Shown here one piece after another: positions 392-20,885 of a stretch of DNA of 21,041 nt. Each line of letters starts with the position of its first letter. Position 1 is the first letter of the stretch. This DNA comes from Actinomycetes bacterium (lineage in GTDB: Bacteria > Actinomycetota > Actinomycetes > Mycobacteriales > Mycobacteriaceae). The notes under the pieces are model-generated. The model did no database searches, was not told the DNA's origin, and saw only the letters and a list, made by a program, of their open reading frames with translations. A program made the position numbers and the translations under genes. The DNA lies in NCBI GenBank assembly GCA_022600695.1, contig JAHZJY010000175.1, forward strand, positions 1 to 21,041. The letters are read 5' to 3'.

Positions 392-1966
392 TCAGCTGGT
401 CGGCAGCAGGTCCGTCCAGTCCTGTTCGCCGTCCTGCGTGACGATATCGGTCTGACGCGCCACCGTCCCGTCCGGTGTGGCGAACTGCCCGGTCTGCGGG
501 TCGTAGGTGGCGATCGCCACTGACGGACCCGCGGCCGGACCCTCAACGTCGGGGCGGAGGGCGCTCGGAGCCACCACGGGACCCCCGGTAACCGGCGCAT
601 CCGGCGCGGATGCCCCCTCGGCCGGCGGCGGGCCCGGTGGTGTCGGGCCGGGCGGTGGCAGCGGGGTTCCCTCCAGCGGCCCGTAGATGTGGTCCTCGAA
701 AGTGACGCGGTCATCCGGCGGGATGCCCTGGGCGATCAGGTTCGGGTCGAAAGGATACGGACCCAGCGCGTGCTGCCGCATGGCCAGCGGCTGGAAGTCT
801 TCATCGCTCTCACACAACTCAGCGGTCGGGGCCCGCTTTCCGGGCTGACCCATGCACGGGTAGTTGCGGGCGCCGCGGACGGCGATCGGCGAGTCCTGCG
901 GCAACTTGCAGTACAGGCCGTCCGGGGTGTCGACATCGGAGAGATCCGAGGGCGATCGCCACGACGACGGCGGCAGGAAACCCACCGTGCAGGCCGGCGG
1001 ATCGTTGATGGTCAAGGTGAAGTCGCCCTGGGTGAACCCGGTGGGATTGTTACGCGGCAGCCCCACCGCCTGCACCGAGGCGATATAGGGCGGCAGCAGC
1101 ACCAGCAACTGCTCCAGGGATGCGTTGTAGGTCACCGCGATCCGGCTGACCGTCGTGAGGTTGGCGAGTAGCACCGGCAGGGTCGGCTTGACCTGGCTCA
1201 GCAGTCGGGACACCTCATTGAGGGCGGCCGGCCCGTCGGAGAGGACCCCACGAAGCTGCGGATCACTGGCGCGCAGTTGACCGGTCAACCCGGCCAGGCT
1301 ACGGGCCCAGCTGCGCAGTGCGTCCGCGGACACCACCTGACCGTCCAGCAGGGGCCGGGCGTCGTCGACAAGGGTGCGGGCCCGGCCGGCAACCCGGTCG
1401 AAGTCCGCGATGACGGTCGACGAGGAGTCCAGCAGGGTCGCCAGGTCGTCGGCGGAACCGTTGAGGCCGTTGAACGATTCGTCCAGGAGTTTGCTCAGCC
1501 GGTCCTTCGGAATGCTCTGCAGCAGCGCGCTGACCTGGTCGAGCATTGGTCCGACCTGCTGCGGGACGGTCGTGTCGGTCACCGCGATCACCGAACCATC
1601 CCGCAGGTAGGGTCCCGAATCGGTTCGGGGCAGGAGGTCGACGTACTGCTCCCCGACCGCGGAGACACTGAGCACCCGGGCCTGGAGATCGGCCGGAATC
1701 CTCGGCGAGGTCGCCAGTGACAGGGTGGCCTCCGCCCCGCCGCGAACGGGTCGCACGTCGGTGACCTTTCCGATCTGCACGCCGCGGTAGGTCACATTGG
1801 AGAATTGGTACAGCCCGCCGGTTCTCGACAGTTCAACTGTGACCGTGATCCGTCCGATCCCGAGCAACGTCGGGACCTGCATGTAGACGCCGACCATCGC
1901 CGCGATACCGACGATCGAGGCGATGGTGAAGATCACCAACTGGGTTCGCACGAATCGGGTGAGCAT
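392..1966 (-). CDS. mceF: MceF, Mce-family (MlaD-fold) lipid-transport protein
   Basis: This 524-residue protein is the last gene of the operon, the usual place for MceF. An N-terminal membrane anchor (about residues 8-30) is followed by an MCE/MlaD domain (about 38-115) with the typical GVQIGKV turn and a VGEQYVDL strand. A long helical region follows (about 140-310), then a C-terminal tail rich in Pro and Ala (about 435-500). Mce proteins are thought to form a hydrophobic conduit that takes lipids from the outer envelope to the YrbE permease. The ATG at 1966-1964 overlaps the stop of mceE by one base (TGATG), which suggests coupled translation. The stop lies 6 bp from the convergent gene on the left, and I see no hairpin terminator there. 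Confidence 0.93.
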   Translation of the reverse strand: MLTRFVRTQLVIFTIASIVGIAAMVGVYMQVPTLLGIGRITVTVELSRTGGLYQFSNVTYRGVQIGKVTDVRPVRGGAEATLSLATSPRIPADLQARVLSVSAVGEQYVDLLPRTDSGPYLRDGSVIAVTDTTVPQQVGPMLDQVSALLQSIPKDRLSKLLDESFNGLNGSADDLATLLDSSSTVIADFDRVAGRARTLVDDARPLLDGQVVSADALRSWARSLAGLTGQLRASDPQLRGVLSDGPAALNEVSRLLSQVKPTLPVLLANLTTVSRIAVTYNASLEQLLVLLPPYIASVQAVGLPRNNPTGFTQGDFTLTINDPPACTVGFLPPSSWRSPSDLSDVDTPDGLYCKLPQDSPIAVRGARNYPCMGQPGKRAPTAELCESDEDFQPLAMRQHALGPYPFDPNLIAQGIPPDDRVTFEDHIYGPLEGTPLPPPGPTPPGPPPAEGASAPDAPVTGGPVVAPSALRPDVEGPAAGPSVAIATYDPQTGQFATPDGTVARQTDIVTQDGEQDWTDLLPTS

Positions 1967-3201
1967 CAGTTGCCCCCTTCGTCTTCGGGGGCTCCGTCTG
2001 CGGGTTCACGGTCCAGCGGGGCAAGCTGCAACTCCGGCGAGACCGGATCAGGAGGGCCGGAGGTGTCCGCGGCTGCCGCCGGTGGCGGGCTGAACGGCGC
2101 GTTGAGCGGGTCGTAGGTGTAGGTCGCGTACCAGGGATCACCGGGTGCCGGAACGAGTTTCGCGCCCTCCTGACCCCAGCGGGTGCCGAGGAAGAGGGTC
2201 TTCTTCAGCCGCGGAACGGTGAAGTCGAAGATGATGTACTGATTGAGGTAGTCGCCCCGGATCGCGCGGTCGATGGTCGCCTGCCCGTACGGGAACGCGG
2301 TGAAGTAGGCCAGCGCCGCATCCAGTTGCGGGCCGACGTCGGCCAGCGACCGCAGTGTGGGTTCCAGGTTGCGCAGATTGCGCACCAGGTCGGCCTGGGT
2401 GTCGGTGACCAGATCCCCGGCCAGGGTGCTGAAACTGCCGAGCTTGTCCAACGCGGCGGTCAGCCGGGGCCGTTCGGCCACCAGAACATCGAGCGCCGGG
2501 GGAATCCGGTCCAGCGCCTCGGTGAGCACATCGCGCTGGCCGGCGAAGGTCCCGGCCAGCCGGTTCAGCGCGACCACCGTCGCATTGATGTTGTCCCGCT
2601 GGTCGGCCAGCACCCCGACGAAGTCATTCAGCCGGGTCAGCAGATCCCGGATCTGCGGTTCCCGACCGCCCAGCGCGGAGTTGAGTTCAGCGACGATATC
2701 GCCGATCTGGCCGACCCCTCCCCCGTTGATGACCACCGACAACGCCGAGAGGGTCTGCTCGGTGGACGGGTAGGTGGACGACTTGTTCAGGCCGAGGGTC
2801 GACCCCGGGGCGAGCCGGCCGGTCGGCGCCTGACCCAGCGGTGGATTCAGCGCCAGATGCATCGAACCCAGCAGGCTGGTCTGTCCCACCGTCGCGACAG
2901 CGTTTGCCGGAATGGTGATCTCCGGCTTGACCGAGATCTCGACGTCGGCATGCCAGTCCCGCACCGACATGTTGTTCACGCTGCCGACCACCACATCGCC
3001 GACCAGCACCGGTGAATTCGGTTCCAGCGTGCTGACGTTGGCGATTTCGATGTGATAAGTGGCAGCGTCCGGACCCCGCCCGACCGCACCCGGCAGCGGT
3101 AGCGAGTTCAGTCCGCCGAAGCCGCAGCCGCTCAGCGCGACGACCAGCGCGAGGCAACCGGCCGCCCGAACCAGCCGGCGGTAACCGAGGACACAGATCA
3201 T
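1966..3201 (-). CDS. mceE: MceE (LprK-type) Mce-family lipoprotein
   Basis: The gene encodes 411 residues when started at the ATG at 3201. The frame stays open further upstream, to 3450, but this start is favoured because it forms an ATGA overlap with the end of mceD and directly begins a lipoprotein signal. That signal has basic RR residues, a hydrophobic stretch, and the lipobox LSGC with the acylated cysteine at residue 26. The MCE domain follows (about 50-130, with VLVGDVVVGSV), then a coiled or helical region and a Pro-rich tail (PPPAAAADTSGPPDP). MceE is the one lipid-anchored subunit in each Mce set, matching LprK of the M. tuberculosis mce1 operon. It should sit on the outer face of the inner membrane with the other Mce subunits. 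Confidence 0.93.
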   Translation of the reverse strand: MICVLGYRRLVRAAGCLALVVALSGCGFGGLNSLPLPGAVGRGPDAATYHIEIANVSTLEPNSPVLVGDVVVGSVNNMSVRDWHADVEISVKPEITIPANAVATVGQTSLLGSMHLALNPPLGQAPTGRLAPGSTLGLNKSSTYPSTEQTLSALSVVINGGGVGQIGDIVAELNSALGGREPQIRDLLTRLNDFVGVLADQRDNINATVVALNRLAGTFAGQRDVLTEALDRIPPALDVLVAERPRLTAALDKLGSFSTLAGDLVTDTQADLVRNLRNLEPTLRSLADVGPQLDAALAYFTAFPYGQATIDRAIRGDYLNQYIIFDFTVPRLKKTLFLGTRWGQEGAKLVPAPGDPWYATYTYDPLNAPFSPPPAAAADTSGPPDPVSPELQLAPLDREPADGAPEDEGGN

Positions 3202-4712
3202 GACGGCGGCTCCCCCACTCCGGCCGGCAGCGGCACCGGCGGCGGCATCGGCGGCGGGGGAACCGGCGCCGCCTCGGCCGGCAGCAGCATGTCCTGCACA
3301 TTGGACGGGGTGCTCGGCGCGGGAACCGATGCCTGGCCGTGCGCGACACCCGCCGGAACGGGCGCACCCGGGAAGAGCGCGGGCTGCGGGTCGGCGGGCA
3401 GACCGTCGGGCGTATAGGCGCCCTGCCGGAGGTCCGGCGGCCCACCCCATCCGGCCGGCGGCGGCACGTCACCGTCGAGGCCGGTATAGGCCGAGATGGA
3501 GGGGGGCAGTTCCACGGGTGCGGTGCCGCCTTCGGCACCGGGAGCCAACTTCGGCTCGGAATACACGAGGTTCCACGGACTGGGCGACTTGCCGAGGTAG
3601 GCGTTGAACGGCAGCGGCAGATAGTTGAAGTTGATCAGGCGCAGTGCCGGCCCGAGATATTGCGAGCACAGCCTGCTGGTCTCGCTGGCCGTCGCGTTCT
3701 CAATGGCACCGATCGCCGCGCAGACCACCTGAAGGGGGTTGGAGAAGTTCGCCAGCGCGAAGCCGCCGAGCGCGCTTTGGATGTCCGGGTTGTAGATGTT
3801 GTAGCTGTTCCCGATCGCGTTGGGTGCCACATGCAGCAGATTCTTCAGAGCGGACTGATTGTCACTGAGGTTGCGGACGACATCGCTCAGACGGCCGATC
3901 TGCTCGGCAGTCTGGTTGCGGCTGCCCGCGACGAACCGCTGGACGTCCACCACCGCGCTGGAGAGATTGGTCAGGGCCGCATCGAGATCCGATCGGCTGC
4001 CGTCGAGCACACCGGCCACGGTGGCGAGCCGGTCCTGGAACTGGACGATCTGGGTGTTGCTGTCCCGCAGTGCGGTGACGAAGGTCTGTAGGTTCTCGAT
4101 GACATCGACGATATTGCCGCTGCCGTCGGCCAGGATGCGGCTGAGCCCGGACAGTTGCGCGATGGTGTCACGCAGTTTCTCGCCGTTGCCGTCCATGGCT
4201 CCCGCGGCGCTGTCGATGAACCGGCCCACCGACGAGGTGGACTGGTCGAGGGTGGGGCCGAGATCGGTTGCCAGCCTGGTCAACTGTTCCTTGACCTGGT
4301 CCCACTCGACGGGCACGGCGGTGCGGTCGGTGTCGATCACCGCACCGTCGCGCATCCTGGGACCGTCAGGCCGCCCATCCGCGCCGTAGGCGGGGGCGAG
4401 TTGGACATAGCGCGCGCCGACCAGGTTTTGGGCCACCATGACGGCCCGGGCATCGGCCGGGATGGGCACCGTGCGGTCAACGGCCAGGGTCATCTTCGCT
4501 TTGGTGCCGCGCGGTTCGATCTCCTTGATCGTGCCCACCTTCACCCCGGCGACCCTGACCTCATCACCGGGGTAGATCGCGGTGGCACTGGTGAAGTAGG
4601 CGGTGATCGTCGTCGGCTTCAGTGCGACGTTGCGCACCAACAGACCCGCTCCCCCGGCGATCAGCAGGGCCAGCAACGCGGCGATCGCCACGGTGGACCG
4701 GGTACGCGTCAT
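3198..4712 (-). CDS. mceD: MceD, Mce-family lipid-transport protein
   Basis: The protein has 504 residues from the ATG at 4712. The frame is open to 4757, but this start gives an ATGA overlap with the mceC stop and begins directly with a membrane anchor (MTRTRSTVAIAALLALLIAG). The MCE domain lies at about 33-115 and includes DEVRVAGVKVGTI and LVGARYVQL. A long helical section follows, then the MceD-like segment ANFSNPLQVVCAAIGAIENA with paired cysteines. The tail is very rich in Pro and Ala (PPPPMPPPVPLPAG). These C-terminal features, together with position, separate it from the other Mce paralogues. It is expected to be one of six different subunits building the lipid tunnel. Confidence 0.92.
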   Translation of the reverse strand: MTRTRSTVAIAALLALLIAGGAGLLVRNVALKPTTITAYFTSATAIYPGDEVRVAGVKVGTIKEIEPRGTKAKMTLAVDRTVPIPADARAVMVAQNLVGARYVQLAPAYGADGRPDGPRMRDGAVIDTDRTAVPVEWDQVKEQLTRLATDLGPTLDQSTSSVGRFIDSAAGAMDGNGEKLRDTIAQLSGLSRILADGSGNIVDVIENLQTFVTALRDSNTQIVQFQDRLATVAGVLDGSRSDLDAALTNLSSAVVDVQRFVAGSRNQTAEQIGRLSDVVRNLSDNQSALKNLLHVAPNAIGNSYNIYNPDIQSALGGFALANFSNPLQVVCAAIGAIENATASETSRLCSQYLGPALRLINFNYLPLPFNAYLGKSPSPWNLVYSEPKLAPGAEGGTAPVELPPSISAYTGLDGDVPPPAGWGGPPDLRQGAYTPDGLPADPQPALFPGAPVPAGVAHGQASVPAPSTPSNVQDMLLPAEAAPVPPPPMPPPVPLPAGVGEPPS

Positions 4713-5848
4713 GGCTGCCCCACCGTCTGAGGGGGGATGCCGAACGGCCCCCACCACTGATTGGGTTGCGGAATACCGTTGTAGGGCAACGGGAACTCCG
4801 CGCGTGGTCCGGCGTTGTCCGGCGGTTGTCCGGCGTCCACCCCGCGCCGGAAGCCCAGTGCGTAGTCGAAGAACGGCTGCAGTGTCTGCGCCGGTGACAG
4901 GTTGGCAACGAAGGCGTTGTAGTAGAAACCGTTGTTCACCGCCTCGGCCTGGGTCAGCTGGAATTTGGCCAGGCCGGCCATCGCCTTGCCGACATTGTCG
5001 TTATTGCGTTGCAGCATCTCGGTGACCGCGTTCAGCTTCTCCAGCGCCGGCGCCAGATCCTGCTCATTGTCGGCGACCAAGCCGCTGAGTTGCTGGGACA
5101 GCGCGGAGGTGTTGGCCAGCAGATTGACAATCGCGTAGCGGCGTTCCTCGAGCACCCCCAGCAACTCGTTGGCATTGAGTATCAGCGCGTTGACCTGCTG
5201 GCTGCGCTCGGCGAGGATGCCGGTCACCTCCGAGGCGCTCGCGAGTAGATCGGCCAGCGAACCGTTGCGCTCGTTGAGCGCCCTGGAGATCCGGCTGATT
5301 CCGTCGAAGGTCGGCCCGAGGTGCGGCGCCAGCCGGTCGATGGTCGTCGACAGGGTGTCCAGCGACTGGTTGAGTGCGGCGGTGTCGGTGTCGGTGGTGT
5401 TGGCGGTGAACTCACCGAGCGCATCGGTCAGCGAGTAGGGCGAACCGGTGCGCGACACTGGGATGACATCGGCGGGGCTGAGTCGCCCCTCGCCGGCCGA
5501 CTCCAGCGTCAGCAGCCGCTGACCGAGCAACGTCCCGGTCCGGATGTGCGCGGTGGTGGCCGAGCCGAGCCGAACCTTGCCGTTGACCGCGAAAGTCACC
5601 AGCGCCTTGCCCATGTCCGGGCCCCGACCCAGCGCCACCTCGGACACGGTGCCCACCTTGACGCCGGAGACCTTGACCTCGTTACCGGGGACCAGGCCGC
5701 CGGCCTCGATGAACAATGCTTGATGGTGGACCGAGGTCGCCAGCGTCAGCAGTCGCTGCGGCTGGAGACCGACGGTGATGATGAGCGCGATCAGCGTCAG
5801 CCCGATGAACCCGGAGCGAACCAGATGGGGGCCATGGTATTTCAGCAT
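4709..5848 (-). CDS. mceC: MceC, Mce-family lipid-transport protein
   Basis: The protein has 379 residues when started at the ATG at 5848 (MLKYHGPHLVRSGFIG). The frame is open to 5956, but the extra 36 residues overlap the end of mceB and do not look like Mce sequence. A membrane anchor (about 10-30) precedes the MCE domain (about 38-115, EVKVSGVKVGTV and LLGQRLLTLES). The helical domain ends in a segment typical of MceC, FYYNAFVANLSPAQTLQPFFDY. Unlike most junctions here, 16 bp separate it from the mceB stop, and that gap carries a purine-rich GAGAAG element that can act as its own ribosome site. The C-terminus is short and lacks the long proline tail of MceD and MceF. Confidence 0.92.
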   Translation of the reverse strand: MLKYHGPHLVRSGFIGLTLIALIITVGLQPQRLLTLATSVHHQALFIEAGGLVPGNEVKVSGVKVGTVSEVALGRGPDMGKALVTFAVNGKVRLGSATTAHIRTGTLLGQRLLTLESAGEGRLSPADVIPVSRTGSPYSLTDALGEFTANTTDTDTAALNQSLDTLSTTIDRLAPHLGPTFDGISRISRALNERNGSLADLLASASEVTGILAERSQQVNALILNANELLGVLEERRYAIVNLLANTSALSQQLSGLVADNEQDLAPALEKLNAVTEMLQRNNDNVGKAMAGLAKFQLTQAEAVNNGFYYNAFVANLSPAQTLQPFFDYALGFRRGVDAGQPPDNAGPRAEFPLPYNGIPQPNQWWGPFGIPPQTVGQP

Positions 5849-5864: not shown

Positions 5865-6890
5865 TCACGGTTCCGCGCACCTTCCGGTGTGCTGCATGAT
5901 CCACGGGAAGTAGGCGGTCCGGCCCTGCAGGTCGCTGACCCGGAACGACATTCCACACAGGTACTGGTTGATCCAGCTGCCGTAGGAGCCGAGCCGGACC
6001 AGCTTGCGGTAGTTCTTCGGTGCCTTCTGCAAGGCGAGGTCCAAGGTCTCCTTGTCCTGATCCAGAATGGGCGCCAGCCTGGCCAACTCGTCGACGGTCC
6101 CGGCCAGCGGCGCCCGCGCCTCGGTCAGCAGATCCGTCAGCACCGCGGTGCCGTCATCGAGGGCGGTGATCGCGGTGCCGATCGGATCCCGGTCCGCCGA
6201 CAGGCCGGTGATGAGAGTCTCCAGACGGTCCACCGCGACGGAGAACTTGTCTCCGTCTGTGCTGATGGTCGCCAGCACCGCGTTCAGGTTGTCGATCAAC
6301 TGCTGGACGGTTCGGCTGTTGTCGGCGAGCGCGCCGGAGAACGCCGACGTCTTCGCGAACAGCGACTCGACGTTGCTCTCCTGGCCCTGCAGGATCTGGA
6401 TCAGCGAATTGGTCAGGGCGTTGACGGCCTGCGGGTTGAGTCCCTGCACCACGGGTTTGAGCCCACCGAGCAGCAGATCGAGGTCCAGGGCCGGCTCGGT
6501 GCGATCCGCGGGTATCACCGACCCGGCAGGCTGGATGGTGGTCGACCCCGGGCCGTCGAGCAGTTCCAGGTAGCGGTCCCCGACCAGGTTGAGGTAGCGC
6601 ACCGCCGCCGTGGTGCCGGCCGTCAGCACGATATCGCGGTCGGCTCCGAACCTGACGTGCACGGTGTTGTCGGGCTGCAGATCGACGCTGCTGACCGATC
6701 CGATCCGTACGCCGGCCACCCGGACCGAGTCCCCGCTCTTCAGGCTCGATACGTCGTCGAAAACGGCAGTGTAGGAGTTCTCCGGGCCGCCCCGATATTG
6801 GCCGAAGATCGCGAACAGGGCGGCGGTCAGCATCAGCATCACCGCCATGAAGATGCCGATTTTGAGACCGGTCGTACGCAGGTTGATCAT
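5865..6890 (-). CDS. mceB: MceB, Mce-family lipid-transport protein
   Basis: The protein has 341 residues from the ATG at 6890, which overlaps the mceA stop as ATGA. A longer open frame upstream (to 7223) runs across mceA and is not used. A membrane anchor (about 8-28) is followed by the MCE domain (about 38-115) with DSVRVAGVRIGSV and NLVGDRYLELL. A helical domain completes the protein, and the C-terminus includes a CGMSFRV...TGRCAEP cysteine pair typical of MceB. It is the shortest Mce subunit here, as is usual for MceB, and has no proline-rich tail. It should assemble with the other five Mce proteins on the YrbE permease pair. Confidence 0.93.
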   Translation of the reverse strand: MINLRTTGLKIGIFMAVMLMLTAALFAIFGQYRGGPENSYTAVFDDVSSLKSGDSVRVAGVRIGSVSSVDLQPDNTVHVRFGADRDIVLTAGTTAAVRYLNLVGDRYLELLDGPGSTTIQPAGSVIPADRTEPALDLDLLLGGLKPVVQGLNPQAVNALTNSLIQILQGQESNVESLFAKTSAFSGALADNSRTVQQLIDNLNAVLATISTDGDKFSVAVDRLETLITGLSADRDPIGTAITALDDGTAVLTDLLTEARAPLAGTVDELARLAPILDQDKETLDLALQKAPKNYRKLVRLGSYGSWINQYLCGMSFRVSDLQGRTAYFPWIMQHTGRCAEP

Positions 6891-8092
6891 CCGCCGGGCT
6901 GACCGATCTGTGCGGTATTGCGCGGCGGACCGTCCAGCGGGCCGAACAACGCCTGCTTGAGGCCATCGGAGTTCAGCAGAATGCCCTGGTTGCCGTACTG
7001 GGCCTGGTTCGCGCCGATATCGGTGACCACGTACGGCGGGCGCTGCTCGTAACCGACGTTGGGCAGGTCGGTGCACTGCGGCCCGCCCTTGGCGGCGACT
7101 TTCGGCAGGTTGCCCGGATACCGGTAGCGCTCGCGGCCGAGGAAGAACCCCTGCAGTAGCACGGCGCCCGGCACCGGAATTCCCGGGCCGTTCGCCAGCG
7201 GGAGCAGTCCACCCAGTCCGCATGTCAGTGCCTGGTTGTACTCGTTGGTCAGATCGGTGGTGGGCACCAGCAGGTGGATGACATCGGCGAGCGGCTGCCG
7301 GTTCTCGGTGAGCACCTCGGTTCCGATATCGGCCAGCCCGATGGCGCTGAGCAGCAGGGCATCGAGACTGTCCTGGGTATCGACGACGGTCTCACTGATC
7401 CGGGTGGTATTGGCGACGGTGTCCAGTAGATCCGGCGAGGCGTCGGCGAACGCGTCGAATACCGTCGGCGATATTTCGAGGGCGTGGTTGAGGTTTTCCA
7501 GCGCGGGGTTGAGCGTGGCCAGGGCGCTGTCCAGGTCGACCAGAGTCTGCCCGAACGCCTCCCCGCGGCCGTCTAGCGACTTCGACAGCGCACCCAGGGT
7601 CTGGTTGAGCTTCGCCGGCTCGACCGCCGACAGCACCGACACCAATTTCTGGAAGACCGTGTTCAGTTCGACGGTGACTCTGTCGCCGCCCCGGATCACC
7701 GTCCCGGCCTGGAGCGCGGCCGGGGACGGCCGGCTCGGTGCCACCAACTCGACGAACTTGGCGCCGAACACCGTCGAGGAGGTGATCTCCGCCCCGACGT
7801 TGGCCGGAATGACCTTCACCGCGTCCGGCTGGATGGCCAGGTGCAGGGCCGCCCCGCCATCGGGCAACGGCTCGATCGAATCCACCTTGCCCACCTGCGC
7901 GCCGTGGATCTTGACCTTCGCGTTCGGATACATCACCAGCCCGGCGCGGTCGGCGATGACGGTCACCGGGACGCTTCTGGTGAAGCTGTCCTGGAACAGT
8001 CCCACGGCCAGCACCACCACGATGGCCAGCGCAAGCACGGTGAGCACACCCGCCAGTGGGCGGATGTCGGTGGTTCTGCGTCTGGTGGCCAT
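6887..8092 (-). CDS. mceA: MceA, Mce-family lipid-transport protein
   Basis: This 401-residue protein is the first Mce subunit after the two permease genes. A membrane anchor (about 13-32) precedes the MCE domain (about 40-120), which includes RAGLVMYPNAKVKIHGAQVG and STVFGAKFVEL, both hallmarks of MceA. The C-terminal part has the MceA pattern of a cysteine-containing segment (TCGLGGLLPL), RYRYPGNLPKV, a second cysteine (GGPQCTDLP) and a terminal region ending in IGQPGG. Only 5 bp separate its ATG from the yrbEB stop codon. MceA of M. tuberculosis mce1 is the original 'mammalian cell entry' protein, but the family role is lipid import. I cannot assign this operon firmly to a numbered mce type (mce1 to mce9). 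Confidence 0.94.
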   Translation of the reverse strand: MATRRRTTDIRPLAGVLTVLALAIVVVLAVGLFQDSFTRSVPVTVIADRAGLVMYPNAKVKIHGAQVGKVDSIEPLPDGGAALHLAIQPDAVKVIPANVGAEITSSTVFGAKFVELVAPSRPSPAALQAGTVIRGGDRVTVELNTVFQKLVSVLSAVEPAKLNQTLGALSKSLDGRGEAFGQTLVDLDSALATLNPALENLNHALEISPTVFDAFADASPDLLDTVANTTRISETVVDTQDSLDALLLSAIGLADIGTEVLTENRQPLADVIHLLVPTTDLTNEYNQALTCGLGGLLPLANGPGIPVPGAVLLQGFFLGRERYRYPGNLPKVAAKGGPQCTDLPNVGYEQRPPYVVTDIGANQAQYGNQGILLNSDGLKQALFGPLDGPPRNTAQIGQPGG

Positions 8093-8097
8093 CGCGC

Positions 8098-8955
8098 TTA
8101 TCCGGACAGGTTGAAGTTGCCGTCGGAACCGTAGATCGCCAGTGACACCAGCAGGGTCACCGACACCACCACGATCAGCGAGGTCCGCACCGCATTGCCG
8201 ACAGCGACACCGACCCCGGAGGGACCGCCGGAGGCGAAGTACCCGAAATAGGTGTGGACCAGCAGGATGGTGATCGCCATCAGCACCGCCTGCGCGAACG
8301 ACCAGAGCAGGTCTATCGGGTTCAGGAAGGTGTCGAAGTAATGGTTGTAGAGCCCGGCCGACTGGCCGAACAGCGCCACCGTGACGAACTGGCTGGCCAG
8401 GAACGACAGGATGACGGCAATCGAGTACAGCGGCGCAATGGCGACCATTCCGGCCAGTAGCCGGGTCGAGACCAGATACTCCACCGGCCGGATCCCCATC
8501 GACTCCAGGGCGTCGATCTCCTCGTTGATCCGCATCGCGCCCAGTTGAGCGGTCACCCCGGCGCCGAAGGTGGCGGCGAGACCGATGCCGGCCACCACCG
8601 GCGCGGAAATCCGGACGTTGATGAACGCCGCCAGGAACCCGGTCAGCGCTTCCACTCCGATATTGCCCAGCGAGGAGTAGCCCTGTACGGCGAGCGTGCC
8701 GCCCGCGGCCAGGGTGAGAAACCCGACGATGGCCACCGTGCCGCCGATCATGGCCAGGGTGCCGGCGCCCATGCTGATCTCGGCGATCAGCCGAATGACC
8801 TCTGTCCGGTAGCGGACCGCGGCATGGGGCATCCCCGCGATGCCCTTGGCGTAGAACACGGTGTGGTCACCGAGCCGGCCGAAAAAACCGATCGGACGAC
8901 GTAACTCCCGGAAGAGTCTCGGGTAGTTGGCCCGCAGAACGGTCATAGTGCCCAT
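8098..8955 (-). CDS. yrbEB: YrbEB, MlaE-family permease of the Mce transporter
   Basis: This 285-residue integral membrane protein is the second permease of the operon. The MlaE-family signature is at about 145-165 (EEIDALESMGIRPVEYLVSTR), within a run of about five hydrophobic segments (for example IGGTVAIVGFLTLAAGG and LVVVVSVTLLVSLAIYG near the C-terminus). YrbE proteins form the transmembrane core that links the Mce tunnel to an MceG-type ATPase, which is normally encoded elsewhere and is not seen here. The start could be the ATG at 8955, 4 bp after the yrbEA stop, or an in-frame ATG at 8946; neither has a strong ribosome site, so the choice is open. Confidence 0.94.
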   Translation of the reverse strand: MGTMTVLRANYPRLFRELRRPIGFFGRLGDHTVFYAKGIAGMPHAAVRYRTEVIRLIAEISMGAGTLAMIGGTVAIVGFLTLAAGGTLAVQGYSSLGNIGVEALTGFLAAFINVRISAPVVAGIGLAATFGAGVTAQLGAMRINEEIDALESMGIRPVEYLVSTRLLAGMVAIAPLYSIAVILSFLASQFVTVALFGQSAGLYNHYFDTFLNPIDLLWSFAQAVLMAITILLVHTYFGYFASGGPSGVGVAVGNAVRTSLIVVVSVTLLVSLAIYGSDGNFNLSG

Positions 8956-8959
8956 CGGC

Positions 8960-9769
8960 TCAGCCCGTCGTCAGCTGGATACCGATGGCGGTAACCACCA
9001 CGTTGACCACGAACAGCGCCATGAACGCGTAGACCACCGTTTCGTTGACCGCGTTGCCCACCGCCTTGGCCCCGCCCCCGCTGATCATCAGCCCCCGATA
9101 GCAGGCCACCAGTCCGGCGATCAGGCCGAACAGTGCCGCTTTCACACAGGAGATGATGACTTCGGGCACCCCGGTCAGCAGCGTGATACCGGCCGCGAAC
9201 GCACCCGGGTTGACGTTCTGCACGAACACCGAGAACACGTAACCGCCCACGATGCCGATGATGACGACCAGCGAGTTGAGCAGCAGTGCCACCAGGGCCG
9301 AGGCGAGCATCCGCGGGGTCACCAGGCGCTGCACCGGGTTGATGCCGAGCACCTCCATCGCCGCGATCTCCTCACGGATGGTCCGCGATCCCAGATCCGC
9401 GCACATCGCCGTCGCCCCCGCCCCGGCCACGATCAGCACCGTCACCAAGGGGCCTACCTGTGTCACCGCGCCGAAGGCCGCACCCGCCCCCGACAGGTCG
9501 GCGGCGCCGAGTTCGCGCAGCAGGATGTTCAGGGTGAAACTCACCAGCACGGTGAACGGGATCGCGACCAGCACGGTGGGTGCCAGTGATACCCGCGCTA
9601 CGAACCAGGACTGTTCGAGGAACTCCCGCCACTGGAACGGACGCTGGAACAGAAAGCGGACCGCGTCGGCCGACATCGCGAACAGTCCGCCGATGGCTTC
9701 CATCGGGCTGGAGACGCCCTTGCCCAGCGCAATACCCGGCGACCAGCGATCCGCGGACTTGTTCGCCAT
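8960..9769 (-). CDS. yrbEA: YrbEA, MlaE-family permease of the Mce transporter
   Basis: This 269-residue integral membrane protein is the first gene of the mce operon. It carries the MlaE signature EEIAAMEVLGINPVQRLVTPR at about 133-153 and several hydrophobic segments, including LVTVLIVAGAGATAM and LVALLLNSLVVIIGIVGG. It pairs with YrbEB to form the inner-membrane permease. The ATG at 9769 lies 22 bp from a KstR-type operator (9792-9805), so the operon is probably controlled by repression at this site. A purine tract (AGGGA, minus strand) lies about 15 nt upstream of the ATG, longer than ideal for a ribosome site. The next gene on the right is divergent. Confidence 0.94.
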   Translation of the reverse strand: MANKSADRWSPGIALGKGVSSPMEAIGGLFAMSADAVRFLFQRPFQWREFLEQSWFVARVSLAPTVLVAIPFTVLVSFTLNILLRELGAADLSGAGAAFGAVTQVGPLVTVLIVAGAGATAMCADLGSRTIREEIAAMEVLGINPVQRLVTPRMLASALVALLLNSLVVIIGIVGGYVFSVFVQNVNPGAFAAGITLLTGVPEVIISCVKAALFGLIAGLVACYRGLMISGGGAKAVGNAVNETVVYAFMALFVVNVVVTAIGIQLTTG

Positions 9770-9791: not shown

Positions 9792-9805
9792 TGAAACGTG
9801 TTCCA
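9792..9805. promoter_or_regulatory. KstR-type operator in the mce/SDR divergent promoter
   Basis: The sequence TGAAACGTGTTCCA matches all eight fixed positions of the published KstR consensus TnnAACnnGTTnnA. KstR is the TetR-family repressor of the mycobacterial cholesterol and lipid-degradation regulon, including the mce4 locus. The site lies 22 bp from the yrbEA start codon and about 85 bp upstream of the dehydrogenase start, where a repressor could control both genes. Binding itself is inferred, not shown. Confidence 0.65.
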
Positions 9806-9817
9806 ATGTCGTCTCGC

Positions 9818-9823
9818 AACCTA
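9818..9823 (-). promoter_or_regulatory. Possible -10 element for the mce operon
   Basis: On the minus strand this reads TAGGTT, which fits the mycobacterial SigA TANNNT pattern. A start about 7 nt downstream would place the KstR-like site just after the transcription start, a common repressor position. I see no convincing -35 at normal spacing, so this is tentative. Confidence 0.25.
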
Positions 9824-9889: not shown

Positions 9890-10693
9890 ATGACCGTTCA
9901 GCGCTACAGCGATCGCCGGGTCCTGATAACCGGTGCCGGCTCCGGAATCGGGCAGGCGTGCGTGCTCCGCATCCTCGGCGAGGGTGGGTTGGTGACGGCG
10001 GCCGATATCAGCCGTTCCGGGCTCGACGACACCGTCGCCAAGGCAGGTGCGGATTGCGGTCGGCTGCACACCGTGGTGATGGACGTCGGCGATGAGGAGT
10101 CGGTGATCGCCGGGGTGGCTCGGACAGTCGACCTTCTCGACGGCCTGGACACCCTGGTGAACGTTGCGGGGATTCTGCGCTCCGCGCACCTGCTGGACAC
10201 CACGCTGGCCGACTTCGAGCAGGTGCTCCGGGTAAACCTGGTGGGCACGTTCCTGGTCGTCCGGGAGGCTCTCCCGGCGCTGCGCCGCGGTAACGCCCCC
10301 GCGGTGGTGAACTTCAGTTCCACCTCGGCGACGTTCGCCCACCCGTACATGTCGGCCTACGCGGCCTCCAAGGGCGGGATCATGGCGATGACGCACGCGC
10401 TGGCCGCGGAGTTCGCCAAGGAGGGCATCCGGTTCAATTCGGTGCAGCCCGGCTCCATCTCGTCGGGGATGACCGACGGGACCGGGGCGTCGCGGCAGAG
10501 TGTCGGCCCCGGCCTGCCCCGTGATGCGGACTTCACCCTCTTCGACCGGGTCGCGCCCGGGTTGCCGCTGCCGGGCGGCGCCATCTTCGCCGACCCCACC
10601 GCAGTGGCCGCGGTGGTGGCGATGCTCGGCAGCTCGGAGGCCTTTTTCGTCACCGGCACCGAGGTTCGCATCGACGGCGGCGCCCACATGTAG
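9890..10693 (+). CDS. Classical short-chain dehydrogenase/reductase (SDR)
   Basis: The 267-residue protein is an NAD(P)(H)-dependent oxidoreductase with a full set of classical SDR motifs. These are TGAGSGIG (14-21), the NVAG motif (91-94), Asn116, Ser143/144 and the catalytic Y157-x3-K161. An aspartate at residue 39, at the end of the second beta strand, suggests NAD(H) rather than NADP(H). The ATG at 9890 is chosen because AGGAG sits 8 nt upstream; the frame is open to 9782, but that extension runs through the control region. The gene is divergent from the mce operon and shares its upstream region, including the KstR-like site. In M. tuberculosis mce4 an SDR (hsd4A) also adjoins yrbEA, though in the same direction. 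Its substrate, possibly a hydroxy-steroid or hydroxyacyl compound, is inferred. Confidence 0.9.
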   Translation: MTVQRYSDRRVLITGAGSGIGQACVLRILGEGGLVTAADISRSGLDDTVAKAGADCGRLHTVVMDVGDEESVIAGVARTVDLLDGLDTLVNVAGILRSAHLLDTTLADFEQVLRVNLVGTFLVVREALPALRRGNAPAVVNFSSTSATFAHPYMSAYAASKGGIMAMTHALAAEFAKEGIRFNSVQPGSISSGMTDGTGASRQSVGPGLPRDADFTLFDRVAPGLPLPGGAIFADPTAVAAVVAMLGSSEAFFVTGTEVRIDGGAHM

Positions 10694-10885: not shown

Positions 10886-12064
10886 CTGAACGAGATCGGC
10901 GCCGCCATCACCCGGCAGACTCCCGCGTCGAGCCGCCGGCATCGCAACGACTCCCCGGTGATCGAAATAGACCACGTCACCAAGCGCTTCGCGGACTACG
11001 TGGCCGTCGACGACGCGGACTTCTCCGTCGGCGCGGGCGAGTTCTTCTCGATGCTCGGCCCGTCGGGCTGCGGCAAGACCACTACCTTGCGGATGATCGC
11101 CGGGTTCGACACCCCGACCGAAGGCGCCATCCGGCTCGAAGGTGCGGACGTGTCGCGGACCGCACCCAACAAGCGCAACGTCAACACCGTCTTTCAGCAC
11201 TACGCCCTGTTCCCGCATATGACGGTGTGGGACAACATCGCCTACGGTCCCCGAAGCCGCAAGAAGGGCAAGGCGCAGGTCAAGAAGGACGTCGACGAGA
11301 TGATCGATACCGTTCGGCTGACCGACCTGGCGCTACGCAAACCCGCCCAGCTCTCCGGTGGCCAGCAGCAGCGGGTGGCGTTGGCCCGGGCGCTGGTCAA
11401 CTATCCCAGCGCACTGCTGCTCGACGAGCCGCTCGGTGCGCTCGATCTCAAGCTGCGCCACGTCATGCAGTTCGAACTCAAACGGATCCAGCGCGAACTG
11501 GGTATCACCTTCGTCTACGTCACTCATGACCAGGAGGAGGCGCTGACGATGAGCGACCGGATCGCGGTGATGAACGCCGGCAACGTCGAGCAGATCGGTA
11601 CGCCCACCGAGATCTATGATCGCCCCGCGACGGTATTCGTCGCCGGGTTCATCGGTCAGGCCAACCTGTGGCACGGCCGCCGGACCGGCCGGGCCAACCG
11701 CGACTACATCGAGATCGACGTTCTCGGCACCACGTTGACGGCACGTCCCGGCGATACCGGCATCGCGACCGGCAGCGAGGCCACCCTGGTGGTGCGTCCC
11801 GAACGGGTGCGCGTGTCGATGGAGCGGCCGGGCGGGGAGTCGGCGACGGTGCGCGCCACGGTCGTCGACATCACCTTCCAGGGGCCGGTGCTGCGGCTGT
11901 CGCTGGCCGCGGCCGACGGCTCCCCGGTGATCGCCCATATCGGACCGGAGCAGGACCTGCCGATGCTGCGGCCGGGTGACGACGTCCACTTCGGGTGGGC
12001 GCCGGACGCCGCCCTCGTGCTGTCGGCCGCTGATGCCCCGACCGATGATCCGCCTCTGGTCTGA
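10886..12064 (+). CDS. potA: Polyamine-type ABC transporter ATP-binding protein (PotA family)
   Basis: The protein has 392 residues if it starts at CTG (10886), as the AGGAGG 6 nt upstream suggests. ATPase motifs, numbered from that start, are Walker A GPSGCGKT (58-65), Q-loop Q104, signature LSGGQQQR (156-163), Walker B LLLDEP with D180/E181, and H-loop His214 in YVTHDQEEA. The C-terminal part, after about residue 270, is a TOBE-like regulatory domain ([15 protein letters not shown]), as in PotA. It should energise import by the two permeases encoded downstream. Other starts are an ATG at 10799, inside the repeats, and a GTG at 10958 with no ribosome site. The length and domain order match the polyamine/opine/phosphonate ABC family. 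Confidence 0.92.
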
Positions 12065-12065
12065 T

Positions 12066-12086
12066 CCCGTCCCCCGTCCCCCGTCC
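12066..12086 (+). repeat. Three tandem CCCGTCC heptamers between potA and potD
   Basis: Three perfect copies of CCCGTCC run head to tail just after the potA stop. The 62-bp gap to potD also holds a purine-rich ribosome site, GAGGAAAGG (12111-12119), 7 nt before its ATG. The heptamers may simply be slippage-prone low-complexity DNA. Confidence 0.7.
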
Positions 12087-12126
12087 CCAGACCGGAATCC
12101 CCGGAACCGAGAGGAAAGGCAACACC

Positions 12127-13305
12127 ATGGCAGAAATCGACCCGCGGGTGCCGGCCCGGCGCAACTCCCGCCGGCGGTTCATCGGTGGCGGCGCCGCCGC
12201 GGCCGCAGCCCTGATCCTGGGCCCGTCGTTTGTGGCCGCATGCGGTTCGGGCAACAAGTCCTCGCCCGGCGCCTCGGAGGCGCCGTCCGAAGACGGCGGC
12301 CCGGCGGCGGGCACCCTGCGGATCTCCAACTGGCCGCTCTATATGGCGGACGGCTTCATCGCCGGCTTCCAGACCGCCACCGGTCTGGTCGTCGACTACA
12401 AAGAGGACTTCAACGACAACGAGGAGTGGTTCGCCAAGAACAAGGAACCGCTCTCGCGACGCCAGGACATCGGCGCCGATCTGGTGGTACCCACCCAGTT
12501 CATGGCCGCCCGACTGGCCGGACTCGGCTGGCTCAACCCGATCAGCGCCAGCCGCTGGACCAATAAGAAGAATCTGCGCACCGACCTGATGGACAACAAG
12601 TCCGATCCGGGTCGCGAATTCAGTGCGCCGTACTTGTCCGGGATGGTGGGTCTGGCCTATAACCGGGCCGCGACCGGGCGGGATGTCACAACGATCGACG
12701 ATCTGTGGGATCCGGAGTTCAAGGGCAAGGTGAGCCTGTTCAGCGACGCGCAGGACGGACTGGGCATGTTGATGATGTCCCAGGGGCATTCCCCGGAGGA
12801 TCCGACGACCGAGACCGTGCAGAAAGCCGTGGACATGGTCATGGAGCAGAAGGAGAGGGGCCAGATCCGGCGCTTCACCGGCAATGACTACGCCGACGAT
12901 CTGGCCGCCGGCAACACCGTGATCGCCCAGGCGTACTCCGGCGATGTGGTCCAGCTTCAGCAGGACAACCCGGATCTGAAATTCGTGGTGCCGGAGTCCG
13001 GCAGCACCACCTTCCTGGACACCATGGTGATTCCGTACACCACACAGAATCAGAAGGCCGCCGAGGAGTGGATCAACTACGTCTATGACCGTGCCAACTA
13101 CGCGAAGCTGGTGGCGTTCACCCAGTTCGTCCCGGTGCTCAGTGATATGACGGCCGACCTGGACAAGATCGACCCGAAGCTGGGCTCCAACCCGCTGATC
13201 AACCCGTCGAAGGAGACGCTGGCCAAACTGAAGGCCTGGGCACCGCTGACCGATGAGCAGACCCAGGAGTTCAACAGGGCCTACGCCACCATCACCGGCG
13301 GCTGA
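12127..13305 (+). CDS. potD: Polyamine-type substrate-binding lipoprotein (PotD/PotF family), Tat-exported
   Basis: This 392-residue protein is the extracellular binding component of the transporter. Its N-terminus has a twin-arginine motif (SRRRFIG, residues 14-20), an Ala-rich hydrophobic stretch and a lipobox ending at Cys39 (FVAAC). It should thus be exported folded by Tat and then lipid-anchored. The mature part begins with a typical PotD-like strand, LRISNWPLYM, and includes the family segments IDDLWDPEFKGKVSLF and AQAYSGDV. Aromatic and acidic residues of this family bind spermidine or putrescine. I infer a polyamine or similar amine from family and gene context; the exact ligand cannot be read from the sequence. 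A clear ribosome site (GAGGAAAGG) lies 7 nt before the ATG. Confidence 0.9.
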   Translation: MAEIDPRVPARRNSRRRFIGGGAAAAAALILGPSFVAACGSGNKSSPGASEAPSEDGGPAAGTLRISNWPLYMADGFIAGFQTATGLVVDYKEDFNDNEEWFAKNKEPLSRRQDIGADLVVPTQFMAARLAGLGWLNPISASRWTNKKNLRTDLMDNKSDPGREFSAPYLSGMVGLAYNRAATGRDVTTIDDLWDPEFKGKVSLFSDAQDGLGMLMMSQGHSPEDPTTETVQKAVDMVMEQKERGQIRRFTGNDYADDLAAGNTVIAQAYSGDVVQLQQDNPDLKFVVPESGSTTFLDTMVIPYTTQNQKAAEEWINYVYDRANYAKLVAFTQFVPVLSDMTADLDKIDPKLGSNPLINPSKETLAKLKAWAPLTDEQTQEFNRAYATITGG

Positions 13306-13309
13306 GTCG

Positions 13310-13324
13310 ATGGCTGTTCCCTGA
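13310..13324 (+). other. Four-codon mini-ORF overlapping the potB start
   Basis: ATG GCT GTT CCC TGA encodes M-A-V-P, and its TGA overlaps the potB ATG as TGATG. potB has no evident ribosome site of its own, so ribosomes ending here could restart at potB. This may be chance; there is no strong ribosome site before the mini-ORF either. Confidence 0.2.
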
Positions 13325-14199
13325 TGGCCGGCACGGCGGGCAGCACCCGGCAGCGCAGCAGGATCGCTCCCTACCTGATGATCCTGCCCGCGCTGGCCTA
13401 CCTCGGTGTGTTCTATGTGGTGCCGTTCGTCTCGTTGCTGCGCACCTCGCTGTCGACGACGGGCGGCTCGGTCTACCTGCCCACACTGACCTTCGCCTGG
13501 GACTTCGGCAACTACGGGCAGGCGCTGACCGATTACCGGGACCAGATTCTGCGGTCGTTCGGATACGCCCTGACCGCCACCGTGCTGTGTGCGCTGCTGG
13601 CATTCCCGCTGGCCTACGTGATCGCCTTCAAGGCCGGACGTTTCAAGAATCTGCTGCTGGGCCTGGTGATCCTGCCGTTCTTCGTCACGTTCCTGATCCG
13701 CACCCTGGCCTGGAAGACCATCCTGGCCGACGACGGCGTGGTCGTCAGCGCGTTGGGTTCGGTCGGGCTGCTGCCCAGCGAGGGCAGGCTGTTGTCGACC
13801 AGTTGGGCGGTGATCGGTGGGCTGACCTACAACTGGATCATCTTCATGATCCTGCCGCTGTACGTCGCCCTGGAGAAGATCGACCCCCGGCTGCTCGAGG
13901 CCTCCCGGGACCTCTTCGGCACCAATCGCAGGACATTCGGCAAGGTGATCCTGCCGCTGTCCATGCCCGGTGTGCTGGCCGGCAGTCTGCTGGTGTTCAT
14001 CCCGGCGGTCGGTGATTTCATCAACGCCGATTATCTGGGCGGCACCCAGACGACGATGATCGGCAACGTCATCCAGAAACAGTTCCTGGTCATCAAGGAC
14101 TATCCGGTAGCGGCCGCGATGAGCTTCGTGCTGATGGCCTTCATCCTGGTGGGCGTTCTGCTCTACACCAGGGCGGTAGGTACCGAGGACATCGTCTGA
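13324..14199 (+). CDS. potB: Polyamine-type ABC transporter permease (PotB family)
   Basis: The 291-residue membrane protein is the first permease of the importer. It has about six hydrophobic segments, beginning at about 15-38 (APYLMILPALAYLGVFYVV), with others around 80-100, 108-128, 163-183, 215-232 and 262-281. The EAA-type loop that contacts the ATPase is at about 192-221 (LEASRDLFGTNRRTFGKVILP...MPG). The ATG at 13324 is the only normal start after the in-frame potD stop, 18 bp upstream. No clear ribosome site precedes it. Its stop overlaps the potC start as TGATG, so the two permeases should be made in equal amounts. Confidence 0.92.
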   Translation: MAGTAGSTRQRSRIAPYLMILPALAYLGVFYVVPFVSLLRTSLSTTGGSVYLPTLTFAWDFGNYGQALTDYRDQILRSFGYALTATVLCALLAFPLAYVIAFKAGRFKNLLLGLVILPFFVTFLIRTLAWKTILADDGVVVSALGSVGLLPSEGRLLSTSWAVIGGLTYNWIIFMILPLYVALEKIDPRLLEASRDLFGTNRRTFGKVILPLSMPGVLAGSLLVFIPAVGDFINADYLGGTQTTMIGNVIQKQFLVIKDYPVAAAMSFVLMAFILVGVLLYTRAVGTEDIV

Positions 14200-15071
14200 T
14201 GGCTCCCACCGACCACGTCCGGCAGGCCGGTACGAGCACGCCATCGGTCACCGGTCCCACCTCCCCCGGCCGTACGTTCCGGTGCGGCCTCAAATTCGGC
14301 GATCTGACCCTGCGGATAGTGGCCGGGCTGGTGCTGTTGTATCTGTTCGTTCCGATCCTGGTGATCATCGTGTTCTCGTTCAACGAGCCCAAGGGCAAGT
14401 TCAACTACACCTGGCAGGGGTTCACCTGGGAGAACTGGCTCAACCCGTTCAAGTACCCGGCACTGGCCAAGGCCCTGCAGATGAGTCTCAACGTGGCCGC
14501 GGTGTCGACTGCGATAGCCCTGGTGCTCGGCACCTTGGTGGCGATAGCCCTGGTACGGCAACGATTCCGGGGCAGCAAGGCGGTGGACACCTTCCTGGTG
14601 CTGCCGCTGACCTCCCCCGAGGTGGTCATGGGCGCCTCGCTGCTGACCCTGTTCCTGAGCATGGGGTGGCCGACCGGCTATGTGACCATCCTGATCGCCC
14701 ACGTCGCATTCGAAATCAGTTTCATCGCGATGACGGTGCGGGCCCGGATCAGGGGCTTCGACTGGACCCTGGAGGACGCCGCACTGGATCTGGGCGCCGG
14801 TCCCACCCGGACATTCTTCACGGTGACGCTGCCACTGGTCGTGCCCGGTATCGTCGCGGCCGCCATGCTGTCCTTCGCCCTTTCGCTGGACGATTTCATC
14901 ATCACCTACTTCGTCAGCGGCTCGACGGTCACTTACCCGCTGTACGTCAACGCGGCCACCAAGGCCGCGGTACCCCCGCAGATCAACGTGCTGGCGACCG
15001 CTATCCTGCTGATCAGCCTCATCCTGCTGATCGTCGGGACGCTCTACCGGCGCACGAGGGTTCCCCGCTAG
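14199..15071 (+). CDS. potC: Polyamine-type ABC transporter permease (PotC family)
   Basis: The 290-residue protein is the second permease and the last gene of the operon. It has a longer hydrophilic N-terminus (about 1-35) rich in Thr, Ser and Pro, then about six membrane segments starting at 38-60 (LRIVAGLVLLYLFVPILVIIV). The ATPase-contact EAA loop is at about 192-221 (EDAALDLGAGPTRTFFTVTLP...VPG). The segment FALSLDDFIITYFVSG is strongly typical of PotC and PotI proteins. The ATG overlaps the potB stop (TGATG). Only 7 bp separate its stop from the convergent pncA stop, and I see no terminator between them. Confidence 0.93.
   Translation: MAPTDHVRQAGTSTPSVTGPTSPGRTFRCGLKFGDLTLRIVAGLVLLYLFVPILVIIVFSFNEPKGKFNYTWQGFTWENWLNPFKYPALAKALQMSLNVAAVSTAIALVLGTLVAIALVRQRFRGSKAVDTFLVLPLTSPEVVMGASLLTLFLSMGWPTGYVTILIAHVAFEISFIAMTVRARIRGFDWTLEDAALDLGAGPTRTFFTVTLPLVVPGIVAAAMLSFALSLDDFIITYFVSGSTVTYPLYVNAATKAAVPPQINVLATAILLISLILLIVGTLYRRTRVPR

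Positions 15072-18426: not shown

Positions 18427-18443
<17 letters not shown>
17715..18443 (+). CDS. SAM-dependent class I methyltransferase (Methyltransf_11-like)
   Basis: The 242-residue protein starts with GTG at 17715, inside the end of the glycosyltransferase gene. SAM-binding motif I is VIDVGCGAGRHS (17-28), the acidic ribose-binding residue is in FDQN (41-44), motif II is around GDARALPYPDGAFDCV (75-90), and VLKPGG (112-117) is the usual post-motif loop. These show a small-molecule or lipid methyltransferase. The C-terminal part (about 150-242) is rich in aromatic and basic residues and probably forms the substrate side. Since it is coupled to a GT4 enzyme, a glycosylated acceptor is a reasonable guess for the substrate. 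It overlaps the next gene by 17 nt. Confidence 0.88.

Positions 18444-20885
<2,442 letters not shown>

What the first reader, a model, noticed from the sequence alone, without database searches (positions are those of the whole stretch)
9792..9805. Perfect KstR-consensus operator between the mce operon and a divergent dehydrogenase
TGAAACGTGTTCCA fits TnnAACnnGTTnnA at all eight fixed bases, in a 120-bp divergent intergenic region. Eight fixed bases are expected about once in 65,000 positions in random DNA, and less often in GC-rich DNA, so placement here is unlikely to be chance. It suggests that this Mce system and perhaps the SDR belong to the sterol/lipid regulon and that the cargo is a steroid or related lipid.
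Basis: partly seen in the sequence, partly recalled or inferred. Interest (0 to 1): 0.75.

Follow-up and report, generated by a model that had tools for sequence, protein, structure and literature searches.

The report
Cholesterol-repressor switch on another lipid importer
A mycobacterial lipid importer carries the DNA switch of the cholesterol repressor, in a group of species that mostly lost the usual cholesterol importer yet kept genes for breaking cholesterol down, so it may be the substitute importer.

Summary
The motif is real and very probably a KstR operator. TGAAACGTGTTCCA (9792-9805) is the window's only exact match and scores 27.4 bits with a matrix from 47 published KstR sites, at or above 31 of their 47 leave-one-out scores. 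The genome (an 86% complete Mycobacterium MAG) encodes KstR and has equally strong sites beside sterol-catabolism genes. The site is not universal: 23 of 110 SDR-upstream regions in the genus sample have it, the rest score 11.3 bits or less; all 23 fall in one supported clade.

New point: the operon is not mce4, and in this clade mce4 is mostly gone. In this genome and in M. litorale F4 otsA abuts hsd4A where mce4 should lie. A YrbE4A orthologue is missing from 21 of 24 operator genomes and present in 75 of 84 SDR genomes without the operator, while ring-degradation gene hsaA is found in 30 of 33. Best reading: another mce operon came under KstR and probably replaces Mce4. Binding, repression and cargo are untested; the co-occurrence is essentially one phylogenetic event, and 7 mce4-less MAGs of the clade lack the operator.

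The parts
9792..9805 (.). KstR operator (palindromic TGAAACGTGTTCCA)
9818..9823 (-). putative -10 element (TAGGTT on the minus strand), 12 bp upstream of the operator for yrbEA; inferred from a conserved TAnnnT
   Evidence: alignments; the consensus promoter scan found nothing here
8960..9769 (-). yrbEA, MlaE-type permease
   Evidence: TIGR00056 below its cut-off; PF02405 above its cut-off
8098..8946 (-). yrbEB, MlaE-type permease
   Evidence: (TIGR00056 below its cut-off)
6887..8092 (-). mceA
   Evidence: (TIGR00996 above its cut-off)
5865..6890 (-). mceB (by position and BLAST)
4709..5848 (-). mceC (by position and BLAST)
3198..4712 (-). mceD (by position and BLAST)
1966..3201 (-). mceE (by position and BLAST)
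392..1966 (-). mceF
   Evidence: TIGR00996 above its cut-off
9890..10693 (+). divergent short-chain dehydrogenase/reductase; substrate unknown

Best explanation
The site is a KstR operator in the leader of an Mce operon (yrbEAB-mceABCDEF) that is not mce4. KstR bound there blocks transcription of the operon just downstream of its promoter; when a sterol catabolite releases KstR (the effector is recalled, not tested) the operon is switched on together with the sterol catabolic regulon. In this Mycobacterium clade the usual KstR-controlled sterol importer mce4 is missing from most members while the catabolic genes stayed, and this operon took over as the sterol-inducible importer. Shown by sequence: the site, the kstR gene, the regulon, conservation in the clade, the empty mce4 locus in two genomes. 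Inferred: binding, repression, sterol cargo, replacement.
For: Matrix score 27.4 bits, sixth best of the 17 strong sites found in this genome's fetched contigs. KstR present and closely matching M. tuberculosis KstR over 199 residues. Strong sites beside kshA, kstD, hsaA, echA19, fadA5 and fadE34/kstR. In 1.45 Mb of 80 homologous loci the matrix finds above 15 bits only the 8 leader sites and one intragenic 15.4. 23 of 110 SDR-upstream regions have 19.1-27.4 bits, the next is 11.3. Operator is the longest run of near-invariant columns in the 23 leaders. otsA abuts hsd4A, with no mce4 between, in this genome and in M. litorale F4. YrbE4A orthologue absent in 21 of 24 operator genomes, present in 75 of 84 SDR genomes without it. 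hsaA in 30 of 33 genomes. Where mce4 remains it has its own KstR site before yrbE4A.
Against: No binding, expression or transport data. 87 of 110 SDR-upstream regions lack the site, and 8 of 16 named SDR-type loci lack it. Seven same-clade MAGs lack both mce4 and the operator yet hsaA is found in 6 of the 7 and kstR in 4 of the 7. Three operator genomes (G094, G137, G005) keep mce4. M. litorale F4 has a second copy of the operon without operator. States change few times on the tree, so the association is about one event and the independent-pairs test cannot reach significance. No consensus promoter was found. KstR regulon genes are not all for sterols.
Confidence: 0.6

Rival explanations
1. 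KstR controls the operon, but its cargo is not a sterol: it imports another lipid (fatty acid, terpenoid or other steroid) used alongside sterols, and sterols enter by another route.
For: PMC1995591 and PMC3388012 (passages) see KstR motifs near lipid genes beyond cholesterol. Homologous operons without the SDR lie beside aldehyde dehydrogenase-like and CoA-transferase-like genes (by eye). Some mce4-less clade members lack the operator and keep hsaA. MceA-F are only 35-40% identical to those of mce4.
Against: YrbEA is closest to YrbE4A of the groups compared (67-71%). In the clade the mce4 loss and the operator occur together in 21 of 24 operator genomes. In this genome no other mce operon found has a KstR site.
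Confidence: 0.22
2. The operator serves mainly the divergent SDR, a sterol enzyme, and the mce operon is only a bystander.
For: The SDR lies beside yrbEA in 56 of the 110 SDR loci read. SDRs occur in the KstR regulon of this genome.
Against: The operator is 22 bp from yrbEA and 84 bp from the SDR; in other members it lies up to about 345 bp from the SDR start. In G005 it stays before yrbEA after other genes separated the SDR.
Confidence: 0.06
3. Another TetR-family regulator, not KstR, uses this palindrome.
For: A TetR-like gene (by eye) stands next to the SDR in M. litorale F4 and strain CH28.
Against: No such gene is among those called beside the SDR in the window. The site fits the KstR matrix including flanks. 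KstR searches at E 1e-60 gave one match per genome in 27 of 30.
Confidence: 0.05
4. A chance match without function.
For: The 8-base consensus alone is common by chance: 9 control matches in this genome, 43 in M. litorale F4. 87 of 110 SDR-upstream regions lack it.
Against: 27.4 bits is expected 0.002 times per genome of this size under independent bases, and the site is kept in a clade while its flanks vary.
Confidence: 0.03

Closest known systems
KstR regulon and its TnnAACnnGTTnnA operator (PMC1995591; abstract, passages and section 10 seen)
   Same: Same palindrome, same score range, intergenic and close to the first gene; kstR and regulon genes in the same genome.
   Different: The regulated mce operon there is mce4; here it is another mce group. 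Binding not tested here.
mce4 operon, sterol importer (PMC6678751 and PMC10049677, passages)
   Same: Same yrbEAB-mceABCDEF order, KstR site just before yrbEA, an SDR gene next door.
   Different: YrbEA 67-71% and MceA-F 35-40% identical; other locus; SDR divergent and only 28% identical to hsd4A over 190 residues.
Tsukamurella paurometabola, cholesterol pathway without mce4 (PMC4810484, passage)
   Same: Cholesterol pathway without mce4 in a mycolic-acid bacterium.
   Different: Named there as the only such complete genome; here a Mycobacterium clade, with another mce operon under a KstR-type site.

Membership tests
KstR operator | Palindrome TnnAACnnGTTnnA | tested here: met
KstR operator | Matrix score in the range of published sites | tested here: met
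KstR operator | Intergenic, just upstream of a gene | tested here: met
KstR operator | kstR encoded in the same genome | tested here: met
KstR operator | Conserved in orthologous loci | tested here: inconclusive
   23 of 110 SDR-upstream regions, all in one clade
KstR operator | Bound by KstR; flanking gene derepressed in a kstR deletion | not testable with these tools
   none
Actinobacterial Mce operon | Two YrbE permeases and six Mce proteins in order | tested here: met
   (mceB to mceE by position and BLAST only)
mce4 operon | Orthology to YrbE4A (85-100% in the orthologues found) | tested here: not met
   67-71% identity; no YrbE4A match at E 1e-112 in this genome
mce4 operon | Place between otsA and hsd4A | tested here: not met
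mce4 operon | KstR site before yrbEA | tested here: met
mce4 operon | Sterol uptake | not testable with these tools
   none
mce1 operon | YrbEA closest to YrbE1A | tested here: not met
   327 bits, against 391 for the YrbEA of contig C112

The most novel reading that the evidence does not exclude
In one Mycobacterium clade a distant Mce paralogue has replaced Mce4 as the sterol importer: a KstR operator arose in its leader, mce4 was cut out between otsA and hsd4A, and the sterol regulon stayed. Cargo can then pass between Mce groups whose Mce proteins are only 35-40% identical, and the genomes with both operons (G094, G137, G005) preserve an intermediate or a later regain.
Probability: 0.5. 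Interest if true: 0.75.

Novelty: new variant of a known kind. Interest (0 to 1): 0.6.

Why it matters
Mce4 is treated as the sterol importer of mycolic-acid bacteria (PMC6678751, PMC4810484, passages), and cargoes of most other Mce groups are, as far as I recall, unknown. A natural replacement would give a cargo for one of them, show which Mce features do not fix sterol specificity, and explain how a group of mycobacteria could use cholesterol without mce4. It also warns against predicting mce4 from Mce superfamily hits.

Tried and rejected
Rejected: a hairpin or terminator at the site (the leader folds no better than shuffles, z -0.53; no terminator-like site). Rejected: the operon is mce4 or mce1 under another name. 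Rejected for this locus: mce4 missing only because the MAG is incomplete (otsA and hsd4A are on one contig, and they also abut in a 6.1-Mb single-record genome); an mce4 copy elsewhere in the missing part of this genome is not excluded.

Led nowhere: assigning the operon to a named mce group (the names shown, for a minority of the 120 listed proteins, are general ones such as MCE family protein; no named mce5-mce8 reference was compared). The SDR substrate (best curated family PRK06138 below its cut-off; best solved relative a hydroxyacyl-CoA dehydrogenase). Direction of change (the tree is not rooted; independent pairs uninformative). PMC6429209 lists Mycobacterium rhodesiae (strain not given in the passages I saw) with None in two columns whose headings I did not see; it scores presence mainly by protein superfamily, so an Mce paralogue could count.

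Rows dropped: G146 (SDR cut short) was not read for the operator; G025 has a contig end 298 bp upstream of its SDR, so its operator state is unknown. Both are left out of the 2x2 count. In the tree G005 was still scored as without operator; its site was found later. For SDR genomes without an adjacent yrbEA, a separate yrbEA leader was looked at only in G005, G009 and G053.

Full report
What was checked. The window is a contig (C212) of a 2.82-Mb, 401-contig, 86% complete genome. The nearest named loci are from Mycobacterium and Mycolicibacterium records, many of them MAGs by title.

Is it a KstR site? I built an 18-bp matrix from the 47 sites of Table 3 in PMC1995591 (section 10). The window's site scores 27.4 bits, at or above 31 of 47 leave-one-out scores. 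In 283 kb of this genome the scores fall into two groups: 17 at 20 bits or more, then 16.6 and below. Those 283 kb were fetched because they carry an exact consensus match or an mce operon, so they are not a random sample. Genes beside the other strong sites include kshA and a ChsH2-like gene, echA19 with an acyl-CoA synthetase gene, a steroid thiolase (fadA5) facing a P450 gene, a Rv3520c-type gene, hsaA, kstD with a HpaH/DmpE-type hydratase gene, and polA. Some strong sites have neighbours without a telling family (for example L018, L038). kstR is in L032 5303-5908, minus strand, facing an acyl-CoA dehydrogenase gene that I call fadE34 by position. It aligns to M. tuberculosis KstR over 199 residues; I count 23 differences in the printed alignment.

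Is it conserved? Of the 80 best homologous yrbEA loci kept, 16 have the SDR orthologue divergent. Eight of those 16 have an exact site within 300 bp of yrbEA; the other 8 and the remaining 64 have none. In all 1.45 Mb of these loci the matrix finds above 15 bits only those 8 and one intragenic 15.4. In the genus sample 110 of 297 genomes have the SDR at E 1e-90. I read upstream of 110 SDR copies from 109 of them: 23 have 19.1-27.4 bits, one has 11.3 (G128, perhaps a decayed site), the rest 7.4 or less. On an SDR tree all 23 lie in one clade of 33 rows (SH-aLRT 99); operator state needs at least 7 changes on the tree. In the 23 aligned leaders the operator is the longest run of near-invariant columns before the start codon, some 12-13 bp downstream of a conserved TAnnnT. 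No consensus promoter was found there, so the promoter is inferred.

Which Mce system? The order is yrbEAB-mceABCDEF. YrbEA is 67-71% identical to YrbE4A and 60% to that of contig C112, which is mce1-like by its score to YrbE1A in PDB 8fed. MceA-F are 35-40% identical to two mce4 sets and 32-45% to four operon sets overall; the C223 operon is more distant. So it is a distinct group, nearest to mce4 in YrbEA among those compared. Six MlaE genes, three operons, were found in this genome; the two other operons have no exact consensus match and no matrix score above 14 on their contigs.

Where is mce4? In 8 of the 9 hsd4A loci fetched a yrbEA gene follows hsd4A; the ninth (G211) ends at a contig end. 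In four mce4 loci KstR sites of 20.6-29.1 bits lie between hsd4A and yrbE4A. In this genome otsA and hsd4A are 46 bp apart on one contig, and in M. litorale F4 10 bp apart (G010 and the M. litorale record share the contig length 6103712). The names otsA, fdxD, hsd4A and fadE26 come from order and length as I recall them in M. tuberculosis, not from a profile scan. A YrbE4A search found orthologues (best match 85-100% identical) in 50 of 80 and 69 of 77 genomes. Among SDR genomes with known state: operator present, mce4 absent 21, present 3; operator absent, mce4 absent 9, present 75; Fisher p 1.7e-12. G005 counts as operator-bearing because its site was found before a yrbEA, with transposase-like genes (by eye) between it and the SDR. 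Seven of the 9 are small-genome MAGs of the same clade; the others, G053 and G009, are 87% and 70% complete. This p value ignores descent: the independent-pairs test could not reach significance.

Is the sterol pathway kept? hsaA was found in 30 of 33 genomes; the misses (G268, G288, G053) are 64-87% complete. kstR was found in 27 of 30; the misses are 83-84% complete. In a sample of 47 SDR-less genomes 7 lack mce4: four of them, at least 99% complete, also lack hsaA, while G033, G149 and G279 (93%, 93% with 7% contamination, 64%) have it. G033 has a 93%-identical YrbEA with no operator in the roughly 360 bp available and may belong to the small-genome group. These, and the seven MAGs, show that sterol ring degradation without mce4 does not always go with the operator.

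How it most likely works. KstR, without inducer, sits between the promoter and the yrbEA start and blocks initiation or early elongation. PMC1995591 reports KstR binding to 29-bp probes with the motif and derepression of flanking genes in a kstR deletion (passages). Induction then gives importer and catabolic enzymes together. Since mce4 is missing from most of the clade, and in this genome no other mce operon found has the switch, this operon is probably the sterol importer. The step from control to cargo is inference.

Known or new. [quoted passage not shown] PMC7593942 (passages) lists a KstR-controlled mce operon in Nocardioides simplex, discussed there with Mce4. In searches (listings) and the passages read I saw no report of a KstR site at a second mce operon or of mce4 loss in Mycobacterium; the library lacks most subscription papers. 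I rate it a new variant of a known kind.

Noticed in passing
L282 6301-8942 (contig C171) and L283 6783-9129 (M. litorale F4): The canonical mce4 place is empty: otsA stands next to hsd4A and fdxD.
   Followed up: yes
L285 and L154 (M. litorale F4, about 4.27 Mb): A second, closely similar copy of the SDR|mce operon without the operator.
   Followed up: partly
L311 (G005): Transposase-like genes (by eye) lie upstream of yrbEA, the SDR is some 3 kb away, and the operator stays with yrbEA.
   Followed up: partly
L297, L298, L299 (G137, G094, G005): Canonical mce4 with its own KstR site, nested on the SDR tree inside the mostly mce4-less clade: a regain or several losses.
   Followed up: partly
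L059, L074, L080, L081, L090: Homologous mce operons without the SDR, downstream of aldehyde dehydrogenase-like and CoA-transferase-like genes (by eye), without KstR site.
   Followed up: partly
L128 (contig C223) 4177-13250: A third, very divergent mce operon (YrbEA 42% to the window's), beside an RDD-like gene (by eye).
   Followed up: no
L036 943: A 25.7-bit KstR-type site before polA, as at Rv1628c/Rv1629 in PMC1995591 Table 3 (Rv1629 = polA is recalled).
   Followed up: no
window 18427-19503 +: A 358-aa reading frame with no Pfam match at E 0.001, between methyltransferase genes.
   Followed up: no
window 10958-15071 +: A polyamine-type ABC transporter (PotA- and PotD-like, two permease-like genes) downstream of the SDR.
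   Followed up: no
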